From Rhodocytophaga aerolata (GTDB lineage: Bacteria > Bacteroidota > Bacteroidia > Cytophagales > 172606-1): a stretch of 64,000 bases of DNA. Below are positions 4,287-12,787 of this stretch, one piece after another. A program made the position numbers and the translations under genes. Numbering within the stretch: the first letter of the stretch is position 1; each line of letters opens with the position of its first letter. The stretch is from assembly GCF_030503435.1 (NCBI RefSeq), contig NZ_JAUKPO010000006.1:1-64000 (forward strand). The letters run 5' to 3'. The notes under the pieces are model-generated. The model saw nothing but the letters and a program-made list of their open reading frames with translations. It had not been told where the DNA came from and did not search any database.

Positions 4287-4378
4287 TGGAATCTAATTTT
4301 TAGTCAGAAAGCGTACATCACCCTCGCATGCAGGCAGCACATATAGCCACAAAACGTATGCAGAAAACGGTCGCCGGC

Positions 4379-6176: not shown

Positions 6177-7682
6177 TTAGGAAGCAGTCTTGGGTCTGAT
6201 CAACTTTGGCTTTTCTATAACAAAAACCAAGACTACAAAAATCAAGCATAGGAACAAATGAAAAGCCGTGGCCATAATCTGGCTGCTGATAGAAATGTTC
6301 ATGGCTACGTAAATCAATACACCTGCACTCAAGATATATATAGCCGCTGATTTTAAATCATAAGGAATAGGGTAGTATTTGTTGCCTAATACATAACAGG
6401 CCACTGTCATTACAATGCAGGAGAGCAGAAATGTATAAGCACAGCCCATATACCCAATAACCGGGATTAATAAAATATTGCCTGTAATAGAAATGAAAGC
6501 ACCAATCAACGTAATCCAGGTGCCATAATGGGTACGGTCAGTCAGCTTAAACCAGATAGAGAGATTATAGTACACGCCCAGAAATAAGTTAGCCAGCAGC
6601 AGAACCGGCACCACTGCCAGACCCGTCCGGTAAAGCGGACTCCGCAGAAAAAGCTGACCTAATATATCCAGATTTACACTTACCCCCAGCCATATAATGG
6701 TACAAACAATAATGAACCACTTCATCACATTGGCAAACAAATGAGGAGAGTTCTTATCTTGGGCTTGTGAGAAGAAGAAAGGCTCAGCGGCATAGCGGAA
6801 TGCCTGAATGGCCAGACTCATAAAAATGGATAATTTATAACAGTTGCCATAAATGCCTAAGGCATCTTTTGAAGTCAGGTTCCTGTAAAATCCTTCAGGC
6901 AATAATTTTTCCAGCATCGTGCGGTCAAACATTTGATTGGTTATTCCTGCCAACCCCATTATTAAAATAGGATAGCCATAGATTAACATAGCTTTTATGT
7001 CTTCTTTACGGATGGTAAATGTAAACCTGGCAAACGAAGGATAGAGTAACAGAAAAAAAGCCGCATTAGCAATCAAATTCGCCAGTACAATGTAGCCAAC
7101 ACCTAAGGTTGGGTTATACACATGTAAAATAAATGGTTTCAGAGAAACAAGCCAGTTTCCTTCATAGATGTTCCGGCAGAACCAAAGGAAAAAGAAGTTA
7201 AGTGCCACATTAATGGCTATGTTTATCATACGTGCTTTCACAAAGGTAGCGGCTTTCTTTTCCAGGCGAAGCTGGGCAAAAGGAATAGCCACAATGGCAT
7301 CAATAGCTAAAATTATAGCCAGCCATGAAATAATATAGCCTTGCTCTGGATAACCAAGTGCAGCGGCAATCTCTGATGAAAACAGGATAAAGCTACCAGA
7401 CAGCAGAGTGCTGCTGATAATAAGAGAGGTAAGGGCTATGTTGTAGTATTTGCGGTCAGTAGTTTTGGAAGCAAAGCGGAAGAAGGCCGTTTCCATTCCA
7501 TAGGTATAGATCACATTGAAAAATGCTACATACGCATATAACTCTACAATGATAGACATTTCCGACGGACGTGCAAACACAGCCGTATGCAGAGGTACCA
7601 GTGCATAATTAAGCAGGCGGCCTAATATACTGCTTACCCCATACAGGGCGGTTTCGCCTGCCAGTTTTTTAAGAACACTCAT
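6177..7682 (-). CDS. Polysaccharide flippase (Wzx/MATE-like), multi-pass membrane protein
   Basis: A 501-residue protein, almost entirely hydrophobic helices (about 12-14 predicted), of the oligosaccharide flippase superfamily. The N terminus (LAGETALYGVSSILGRLLNY) matches the start of this family, which moves undecaprenyl-linked glycans across the inner membrane. A nucleotidyltransferase lies two genes downstream, consistent with surface polysaccharide or O-unit synthesis. Its start codon and upstream region lie inside a long inverted repeat, which may affect translation. The exported substrate cannot be inferred. Confidence 0.85.
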   Translation of the reverse strand: MSVLKKLAGETALYGVSSILGRLLNYALVPLHTAVFARPSEMSIIVELYAYVAFFNVIYTYGMETAFFRFASKTTDRKYYNIALTSLIISSTLLSGSFILFSSEIAAALGYPEQGYIISWLAIILAIDAIVAIPFAQLRLEKKAATFVKARMINIAINVALNFFFLWFCRNIYEGNWLVSLKPFILHVYNPTLGVGYIVLANLIANAAFFLLLYPSFARFTFTIRKEDIKAMLIYGYPILIMGLAGITNQMFDRTMLEKLLPEGFYRNLTSKDALGIYGNCYKLSIFMSLAIQAFRYAAEPFFFSQAQDKNSPHLFANVMKWFIIVCTIIWLGVSVNLDILGQLFLRSPLYRTGLAVVPVLLLANLFLGVYYNLSIWFKLTDRTHYGTWITLIGAFISITGNILLIPVIGYMGCAYTFLLSCIVMTVACYVLGNKYYPIPYDLKSAAIYILSAGVLIYVAMNISISSQIMATAFHLFLCLIFVVLVFVIEKPKLIRPKTAS

Positions 7683-7809
7683 AAGCTGATGTGCTAATTG
7701 AAAGATGTGCTACTTGGTTGTTACCTGAGTAACACCAGTATAAGGTAAAATTAGCCGATAGATTAGTTATATATACTGAAAATTTGTAAAAATTAGCACA
7801 TCAGCCTAT
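7681..7809 (-). promoter_or_regulatory. Long inverted repeat spanning the flippase start codon
   Basis: GCTGATGTGCTAATT at 7685-7699 is the perfect reverse complement of 7791-7805. With one mismatch the arms extend to 7681-7699 and 7791-7809, separated by ~91 bases. In the minus-strand transcript the 5' arm begins ~20 bases after the enoyl-CoA hydratase stop. The 3' arm runs into the ATG (7682-7680) of the flippase gene, so pairing would hide its ribosome-entry region. Inside the loop sits a small hairpin (GTTAC CTGA GTAAC, 7720-7733), and GATGTGCTA is repeated at 7688 and 7704. The repeat is seen directly; its function is inference. Confidence 0.6.
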
Positions 7810-7830
7810 AAGGTAATTAGCATAGAGGTT

Positions 7831-8616
7831 TCACTTTCTCTGGAATTTTGCGGGGCGTTTTTCTAAAAAAGCTTTGGTGCCTTCTTTAAAATCTTCGGAT
7901 TTGCAACAGATGCTGAAAGAGTTGGCTTCCGTCTGGTACCCATCTTCTTCTTTATTGTATACCGCATTTACACAACTGATCACCATCTCAATGGCCAGAG
8001 GTGCTTTGGAAAGTATTTTCCTTAGAATTTCTTCTGCCAGTTGAAGTAGTTGCGCCTGGGTAGGGACCACATGATTTACCAGGCCGATAGCCTTTGCTTC
8101 CTGTGCTGAAATAGTGTCAGCTGTCATCATCAGTTCCAGAGCTTTGCCTTTCCCAACTAACTGAGTAAGCCGCTGGGTTCCACCATACCCTGGTATAAGC
8201 CCTAGATTTACTTCTGGCTGGCCAAATTTGGCACTTTCTACAGCTATCCGTATATGGCAGGCCATTGCCAATTCACACCCTCCGCCTAAGGCATATCCAT
8301 TAATAGCAGCAATTACCGGTTTGGGGCAATTTTCAATCATAGCAAATATCTCTTGCCCACGTTCAGCAAATTTGCGGCTGCTTACTTCCGTTAAGGCGGC
8401 AATTTCTGAAATATCAGCTCCGGCAATAAAGGCTTTTTCGCCCTCCCCTGTAAAAATTACGCCTTTTATCTCCCGGCTGTCGTATACCTGCTGCATAACT
8501 GTGCCTATTTCTTCCATCGTCTTATGGTTTAAGGCATTCAGTTTGGAAGGACGGTTAATACTTACGGTCAGAATACTGTCTTTTATGAGTAAATTTATAT
8601 TATCAAATGCTAACAT
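7831..8616 (-). CDS. Enoyl-CoA hydratase/isomerase family protein (crotonase)
   Basis: A 261-residue crotonase-fold enzyme, probably hydrating short-chain 2-enoyl-CoA in fatty-acid or butyrate-type metabolism. The oxyanion-hole stretch AINGYALGGGCELAMAC and the following FGQPEVNLGLIPGYGGTQRL carry the two glutamates typical of true hydratases. The ATG at 8616 gives the usual length; an in-frame upstream extension to 8664 has no family support and would overlap the -7 promoter element. It is the first gene of the minus-strand run that continues through the flippase. Confidence 0.9.
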   Translation of the reverse strand: MLAFDNINLLIKDSILTVSINRPSKLNALNHKTMEEIGTVMQQVYDSREIKGVIFTGEGEKAFIAGADISEIAALTEVSSRKFAERGQEIFAMIENCPKPVIAAINGYALGGGCELAMACHIRIAVESAKFGQPEVNLGLIPGYGGTQRLTQLVGKGKALELMMTADTISAQEAKAIGLVNHVVPTQAQLLQLAEEILRKILSKAPLAIEMVISCVNAVYNKEEDGYQTEANSFSICCKSEDFKEGTKAFLEKRPAKFQRK

Positions 8617-8641
8617 TTGTTTATTTCTTTGATGAAAGGGG

Positions 8642-8649
8642 CAAAGATA
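8642..8649 (-). promoter_or_regulatory. -7 promoter element upstream of enoyl-CoA hydratase
   Basis: On the minus strand this reads TATCTTTG, an exact match to the Bacteroidota -7 consensus TAnnTTTG, placed 26 bases before the start codon. No well-spaced -33 TTTG was found, so only the -7 box is supported. Confidence 0.5.
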
Positions 8650-8749
8650 CAATAGAAAAATCAAAATGCTGTGGTATCCTACTCAGATTTCGTTACAACT
8701 TAACTGGATAATAATCTGATGTTTTTGCCTGATTTATTACACATACCGC

Positions 8750-12742: not shown

Positions 12743-12787
12743 ATAACCCAGCATACCTATTCATCAGCACATTAACCAACCTAATTT

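What the first reader, a model, noticed from the sequence alone, without database searches (positions are those of the whole stretch)
7681..7809. Long-range inverted repeat that hides the start codon of a polysaccharide flippase gene
A 15-bp perfect inverted repeat (19 bp with one mismatch) brackets almost the whole gap between the enoyl-CoA hydratase and flippase genes. In the mRNA its 3' arm covers the bases directly upstream of the flippase ATG and the ATG's first bases. Pairing would block ribosome entry, and the loop contains its own hairpin plus a repeated GATGTGCTA that could support alternative pairings. This is the arrangement of a translational switch (ligand, protein, temperature or upstream translation). 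A miniature transposon remnant with terminal repeats is the main alternative.
Basis: partly seen in the sequence, partly recalled or inferred. Interest (0 to 1): 0.55.

Follow-up and report, generated by a model that had tools for sequence, protein, structure and literature searches.

The report
Octamer-repeat hairpin filling a gene spacer
The hairpin in front of this flippase gene looks like one worn copy of a family of eight-letter DNA repeats that often come as mirror-image pairs in the gaps between genes of some Cytophagales bacteria, so covering the start codon is probably a side effect and not a dedicated switch.

Summary
The inverted repeat is real and not chance: 15 bp perfect, 22 bp in mRNA with two G·U pairs, predicted to cover the flippase AUG (fold z -7.0). 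The proposed switch is not supported: 29 of 54 syntenic hydratase/flippase spacers (one a duplicate) hold no exact inverted repeat of 8 bp or more, and ten homologous spacers aligned to this one show no likeness. Covariation could not be tested. The arms match a dispersed octamer family, (C/T)AGCACAT. The 15-mer arm occurs 126 more times in 390 Cytophagales genomes (reversed control 2); the tandem form in 34 of 390 (339 hits, control 1) and in 0 of 284 sampled genomes outside the order. Opposed words within 200 nt in the fetched loci read TGTGCT...AGCACA (49:0). Of 120 arrays examined, 35 lie by a start codon and 48 by the stop codon of an opposite-strand gene; both are about 1.7-1.9 times what random spacer points give, so starts are not singled out. 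Best reading: a degenerate, strand-symmetric, spacer-filling element made at the DNA level; start-codon burial (about 24 kcal/mol) is an incidental, possibly real, brake. How the family spreads, and its polarity, remain unexplained.

The parts
7678..7699 (-). mRNA 3' arm of the inverted repeat (perfect core 7685-7699); covers the flippase AUG (7680-7682)
7791..7812 (-). mRNA 5' arm of the inverted repeat (perfect core 7791-7805), beginning 19 nt from the hydratase stop codon
7681..7712 (-). Degenerate octamer array pointing at the flippase start: TAGCACAT CTTTCAAT TAGCACAT CAGCTTAT
7793..7824 (+). Degenerate octamer array pointing at the hydratase stop: TTAGCACA TCAGCCTA TAAGGTAA TTAGCATA; period-8 reading made by eye
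   Evidence: sequence
7713..7738 (-). Inner hairpin in the loop
7739..7755 (+). Word TATAAGGTAAAATTAGC, repeated as TATAAGGTAATTAGC at 7807-7821 (2-nt difference)
6177..7682 (-). Flippase gene (Polysacc_synt_3, PF13440)
7831..8664 (-). Enoyl-CoA hydratase gene (PF00378)

Best explanation
The feature is a short, worn member of a family of intergenic repeats found here only within the order Cytophagales. The unit is an octamer, (C/T)AGCACAT, in tandem or at multiples of about eight bases. It often occurs as two opposed arrays in the order TGTGCT...AGCACA, so that each arm points outward at the gene on its side, near the coding boundary, whether that is a start or a stop codon. Shown: sharing of the arm word, polarity, position and distribution. 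Inferred: the arrays grow by replication slippage and are inverted or homogenised by template switching at the hairpin, a DNA-level process limited by selection on the flanking genes. In this co-directional spacer the arm next to the flippase is predicted to bury the AUG in read-through mRNA. That is a by-product which may lower flippase translation, and would be relieved if the 5' arm were missing through an internal transcript start or RNase III cleavage. The genome encodes RNase III; neither event was shown.
For: Exact 15-mer AATTAGCACATCAGC: 128 hits in 28 of 390 Cytophagales genomes, 126 in 27 without the window's own two; reversed control 2. Tandem AGCACATYAGCACATYA: 339 hits in 34 of 390, control 1; in a phylum-wide sample 1 of 296 genomes, one of the 12 from the order, 0 of 284 others (control 4 hits, all in one genome). 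Of 120 distinct arrays examined: 35 within 60 nt of an ATG (6 of them also by a stop), 48 by the stop of an opposite-strand ORF, 29 other, 8 in ORFs; random spacer points of the same loci: 243 start, 301 stop, 850 other of 1394. TGTGCT lies within 160 nt upstream of 51 of the 120, downstream of 3. With 9-base words, adjacent opposed pairs within 200 nt: 49 (-,+), 0 (+,-), p 3.6e-15. Own genome, 464-kb sample: 23 spacer AGCACAT words, 19 nearer the boundary ahead (12 starts, 11 stops); without this spacer 16 of 20, against 161 of 286 for 55 permuted words (Fisher p 0.03); within 40 nt of that boundary 13 of 20 against 80 of 286 (p 0.001). Of 56 permuted words one is as frequent in spacers, ATCAGCA, itself part of the repeat. 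Two further own-genome sites: L214 with the same 16-nt spacing of two words before an ATG, and L215 with a 10-bp form of the arm pair in a divergent spacer. The spacer is a mosaic of direct repeats: summed score reached by 1 of 150 shuffles, the single best by 6 of 150. RNase III gene 202.7 bits.
Against: The own genome holds no exact tandem 17-mer, so this copy is degenerate and membership rests on word, spacing, polarity and position. The word was suggested by the window and by recall, so the search was guided. Slippage plus template switching does not explain a 49:0 polarity or one word shared across families. Start-proximal inverted matches (p <= 0.01) occur in 8 of 21 homologous spacers of 63-300 nt without the index, against 20 of 332 other co-directional spacers (Fisher p 5.7e-5), which fits a role at this locus, though none of the other 53 homologous spacers holds an AGCACA or TGTGCT word. 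Both stem mismatches are G·U on the mRNA strand, mildly favouring RNA-level selection. No growth, inversion or movement was observed.
Confidence: 0.6

Rival explanations
1. A dedicated translational switch: the stem hides the flippase start until a ligand, protein, heat or translating ribosome opens it.
For: Start burial 24.1 kcal/mol against 7-8 without the 5' arm; fold z -7.0; start-proximal inverted matches enriched in homologous spacers (8 of 21 against 20 of 332).
Against: 29 of 54 syntenic spacers have no exact inverted repeat of 8 bp or more; burial over 20 kcal/mol in 2 of 53 distinct spacers; no likeness to ten homologous spacers; the same word lies at stop codons elsewhere; no Rfam match; opening still costs 16.1 kcal/mol at 60 C.
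Confidence: 0.12
2. A processing or insulation hairpin: RNase III cuts the 22-bp stem, or transcripts start inside the loop, so that the flippase start is open only on its own mRNA and is shielded from hydratase read-through.
For: Opening cost falls from 24.1 to 8.3 when the RNA begins within the 5' arm (7801) and to 7.4 when it begins in the loop; RNase III gene present; adhE and lambda cIII are cited as precedents in PMC5371410 (passages read).
Against: No exact match to a recalled Bacteroidetes promoter consensus in 7651-7900, only partial -7-like matches; no such hairpin in 29 of 54 homologous spacers.
Confidence: 0.2
3. A repeated site for a sequence-specific DNA- or RNA-binding protein, which keeps the word AGCACAT and its polarity, as MacGregor suggested for TAACTGA heptamers.
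For: One word in at least five families of the order and a fixed polarity.
Against: No candidate protein was sought; arrays sit at starts and stops alike; genomes of one family (f12) range from 0 to 50 hits.
Confidence: 0.2
4. A classical MITE with terminal inverted repeats.
For: Inverted arms around a loop; arm words are dispersed.
Against: No second copy of the 161-bp unit in the genome (next best E 0.1); arm lengths and loops differ between the sites read (by eye).
Confidence: 0.05

Closest known systems
TAACTGA heptamer direct repeats upstream of start codons (MacGregor 2015, PMC4679880; abstract and passages read)
   Same: Short-word tandem arrays in spacers, most in one genome close to start codons; found in scattered genomes including five Bacteroidetes; sets may be split by related words.
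   Different: Different word and length (8 not 7); here arrays are often inverted pairs forming hairpins and lie at stop codons as well. The passages read report one inverted case in the main genome; in a cyanobacterial sample some sets lie between stop codons or reversed.
Cyanobacterial STRR heptamer repeats (recalled; only a search listing seen)
   Same: Degenerate tandem short words in spacers (recalled).
   Different: Other word, other phylum (recalled); inverted-pair polarity not checked there.
REP/REPIN palindromes (search listing and abstract starts only)
   Same: Dispersed intergenic hairpins.
   Different: Arms here are tandem octamers of varying length; no GTAG or CGTC tag and no RAYT link was looked for.
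Template-switch origin of hairpins (Monttinen and Loytynoja 2022, PMC8794818; abstract and opening read)
   Same: A mutation process that can create and homogenise perfect stems.
   Different: Not shown to act here; it does not explain the recurring word or the polarity.

Membership tests
AGCACATY octamer spacer family (defined here) | Arm carries the octamer word | tested here: met
   Exact 15-mer arm at 126 other sites in 390 genomes, control 2; at least one of these (L339) looks coding by eye
AGCACATY octamer spacer family (defined here) | Perfect tandem of two units | tested here: not met
   0 exact tandem 17-mers in G000; units are 16 nt apart with a degenerate unit between. Hence 'worn relative', not full member
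AGCACATY octamer spacer family (defined here) | Polarity TGTGCT then AGCACA, arms pointing at gene boundaries | tested here: met
   Window order is (-,+); fetched family loci 49:0
TAACTGA direct repeats | TAACTGA heptamer in tandem | tested here: not met
   Heptamer absent from the spacer on both strands
Riboswitch or RNA thermometer (Rfam) | Match to a curated family | tested here: not met
   No hit at E <= 1 against 4227 families
Riboswitch or RNA thermometer (Rfam) | Compensatory changes in homologues | not testable with these tools
   No homologous spacer of similar sequence among ten aligned; one congener held
MITE | Multiple copies of the whole unit | tested here: not met
   Single copy in 9.07 Mb
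MITE | Target-site duplication | not tested
   No empty site at hand
Intrinsic terminator | U-run after the stem | tested here: not met
   The 3' arm runs into AUGAGUGUUCUU; the terminator scan (loops of 3-8 only) lists none on the minus strand in 7500-8000

The most novel reading that the evidence does not exclude
Cytophagales carry an undescribed family of strand-symmetric intergenic elements: opposed arrays of one octamer, with a fixed polarity, that colonise spacers and stop at start and stop codons alike. An unknown sequence-specific mechanism (an enzyme acting on hairpins, or a binding protein) maintains the word across families of the order. The window holds a decayed copy that doubles as a cis-acting brake on a flippase.
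Probability: 0.4. Interest if true: 0.65.

Novelty: new variant of a known kind. Interest (0 to 1): 0.48.

Why it matters
It turns a one-gene riddle into a repeat family that can be counted over hundreds of genomes, with a polarity rule and a position rule that can be tested. It also warns that hairpins over start codons in these bacteria may be by-products of spacer-filling repeats, so fold scores alone should not be read as regulation. Repeat-rich genomes in the set give a direct route to the mechanism.

Tried and rejected
MITE: no second copy of the unit. Riboswitch or thermometer: no Rfam hit, start still closed in silico at 60 C. Terminator: no U-run. tRNA: none in 7400-8100. Coupling to the hydratase stop: cost falls to 11.5 kcal/mol only if the ribosome covers 28 nt beyond the stop. 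Promoter in the spacer: no exact match to a recalled consensus. A strict lag-7 tandem scan found nothing in the sampled own genome. Covariation: impossible at this locus; in orthologous spacers of repeat-rich genomes (read by eye, eight groups) arms are mostly kept and loops change, and I saw no clear compensated change (L316 loses pairs relative to L287). G/C skew of long-loop 5' arms (G>C 42, G<C 14, ties 9, two groups summed) was post hoc. In PMC8450116 I looked for a precedent of read-through burial; the passages shown gave none. A search of the paper library for six octamer strings found 0 papers; other literature searches. So 'undescribed' means not found in those searches of an open-access library. 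Correction: a notebook entry says five of eight TTAGCACATCA sites lie in ORFs; one search shows three in ORFs (L212, L213, L216) and one (L211) in a stretch without a mechanical ORF, more than 220 nt from the nearest one.

Full report
Observation. On the mRNA (minus) strand the two DNA mismatches become G·U pairs, so the predicted helix runs unbroken for 22 pairs and takes in the flippase AUG. It folds far better than shuffled sequence (z -7.0, 0 of 200), and the best inverted self-match of the spacer is reached by 0 of 150 shuffles. The spacer is also a mosaic of short direct repeats: the summed score of the best four is reached by 1 of 150 shuffles, the single best by 6.

Gene context. Hydratase (PF00378), flippase (PF13440) and dUTPase (PF00692) lie in a row, an order seen in other Cytophagales. 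Of 54 hydratase/flippase spacers (one a duplicate), 29 hold no exact inverted repeat of 8 bp or more; 25 of those are 36 nt or shorter. The spacers of the nearest relatives (L013-L017) do hold start-proximal hairpins, but of other sequence, built from other short words. Ten homologous spacers aligned to this one are no more alike than shuffles allow, and none of the other 53 spacers in the set holds an AGCACA or TGTGCT word. Start-proximal inverted matches (p <= 0.01) are commoner in the homologous spacers of 63-300 nt (8 of 21 without the index) than in other co-directional spacers of the sampled genomes (20 of 332; Fisher p 5.7e-5). That speaks for a tendency at this locus and counts against my reading. 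Yet burial over 20 kcal/mol is seen only here and in L015 among 53 distinct spacers. In the own-genome sample 7 of 181 co-directional starts, mechanically called, reach 20 kcal/mol, and 8 of 309 co-directional spacers of eight genomes, this one included, fold with z <= -4 and a start paired at long range.

The arm word elsewhere. TTAGCACATCA occurs eight times in the 9.07-Mb genome. Two are this spacer's arms. Two more are in spacers near genes: L214, where two words 16 nt apart precede an ATG as they do here, and L215, where a 10-bp form of the arm pair lies in a divergent spacer. Three lie inside ORFs and one (L211) in a stretch without a mechanical ORF, more than 220 nt from the nearest one. 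A tandem version (AGCACATYAGCACATYA) occurs in 34 of 390 Cytophagales genomes, 339 hits against one for the reversed control. In a phylum-wide sample it occurs in one genome of the order and in 0 of 284 genomes outside it; the reversed control gave 4 hits, all in one genome. The exact 15-base arm of the window occurs 126 further times in those 390 genomes, control 2; at least one single hit (L339) looks coding by eye.

Rules of the family. I examined 120 distinct arrays, from loci taken off the tools' listings, not at random. Turned so that they read AGCACAT, 35 end within 60 nt of an ATG on the same strand (6 of these also by a stop), 48 end by the stop codon of a gene on the other strand (-30 to +80 nt), 29 are elsewhere and 8 fall in mechanical ORFs. 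Random spacer points of the same loci give 243, 301 and 850 of 1394. So both boundaries are raised, 1.7-fold and 1.9-fold, and starts are not singled out. TGTGCT lies within 160 nt upstream of 51 arrays and downstream of 3; with longer, nine-base words the adjacent opposed pairs within 200 nt are 49 in the order TGTGCT...AGCACA and 0 in the other. Such a pair reads the same from both strands. In the own-genome sample 23 AGCACAT words lie in spacers, 19 nearer the boundary they point at, 12 starts and 11 stops. Without this spacer it is 16 of 20, against 161 of 286 for 55 permuted words (Fisher p 0.03), and 13 of 20 lie within 40 nt of that boundary against 80 of 286 (p 0.001). The window element obeys the same rules: one degenerate array points at the flippase start, the other at the hydratase stop, with period eight (and by eye).

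How it works. Shown: word sharing, polarity, position, distribution. Inferred: growth by slippage and inversion by template switching at the hairpin. Template switching is reported to make perfect stems (PMC8794818; abstract and opening read), but it does not explain the recurring word or the polarity. Effect on the flippase: a read-through mRNA would carry a buried start (24.1 kcal/mol to open), an RNA without the 5' arm would not (7-8). In Flavobacterium johnsoniae initiation is reported to be tuned in part by structure near the start (PMC6847099; passages read), so a brake is plausible but untested. RNase III cleavage could lift it; the gene is present and precedents are cited in PMC5371410 (passages read).

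Relation to known kinds. The nearest published case found is the TAACTGA heptamer of Beggiatoaceae, cyanobacteria and five Bacteroidetes (PMC4679880; abstract and passages read). The present family differs in word, unit length, inverted pairing and its place at stop codons. I call it a new variant of a known kind. That the window element is a decayed member I hold at about 0.85; that the spacer-filling reading is the right mechanism at about 0.6.

Limits.

Noticed in passing
L013-L017, L068 (homologous flippase spacers): Start-proximal hairpins built of other short words about 7-8 bases long (for example a 31-bp perfect arm in L015, 27 bp in L068), each with its own sequence.
   Followed up: partly
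L177:10674-10769; L148:18476-18545; L164 several; L185:12827-12930; L199:825-896: Similar word-repeat inverted pairs at other genes in relatives: several different words seem to follow the same plan.
   Followed up: partly
L259, L260, L292, L302, L309, L311, L312 and others: Upstream of some octamer arrays lies a second dispersed repeat (like GAGGACGGATTGCTTCG...CGCAATGACA, read by eye); 109 array pairs share upstream but not downstream sequence.
   Followed up: no
window 12766-12772 and 4336-4342: Further AGCACAT words in spacers of the window, 15 nt before an ORF start and 36 nt before an ORF stop boundary.
   Followed up: no
L056:11484-11552: Another spacer of this genome almost filled by a long hairpin abutting a start codon (opening cost 31.1 kcal/mol).
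   Followed up: no
L077, L078, L081, L096: Four Pontibacter flippase spacers share a different hairpin (around GAACGCGCTATACCT) followed by T-rich sequence, terminator-like by eye.
   Followed up: no
noncoding long-loop inverted repeats, sampled genomes: The 5' arm has more G than C in 42 cases, fewer in 14, ties 9; short-loop repeats lean slightly the other way (48 against 64, ties 20; post hoc).
   Followed up: no
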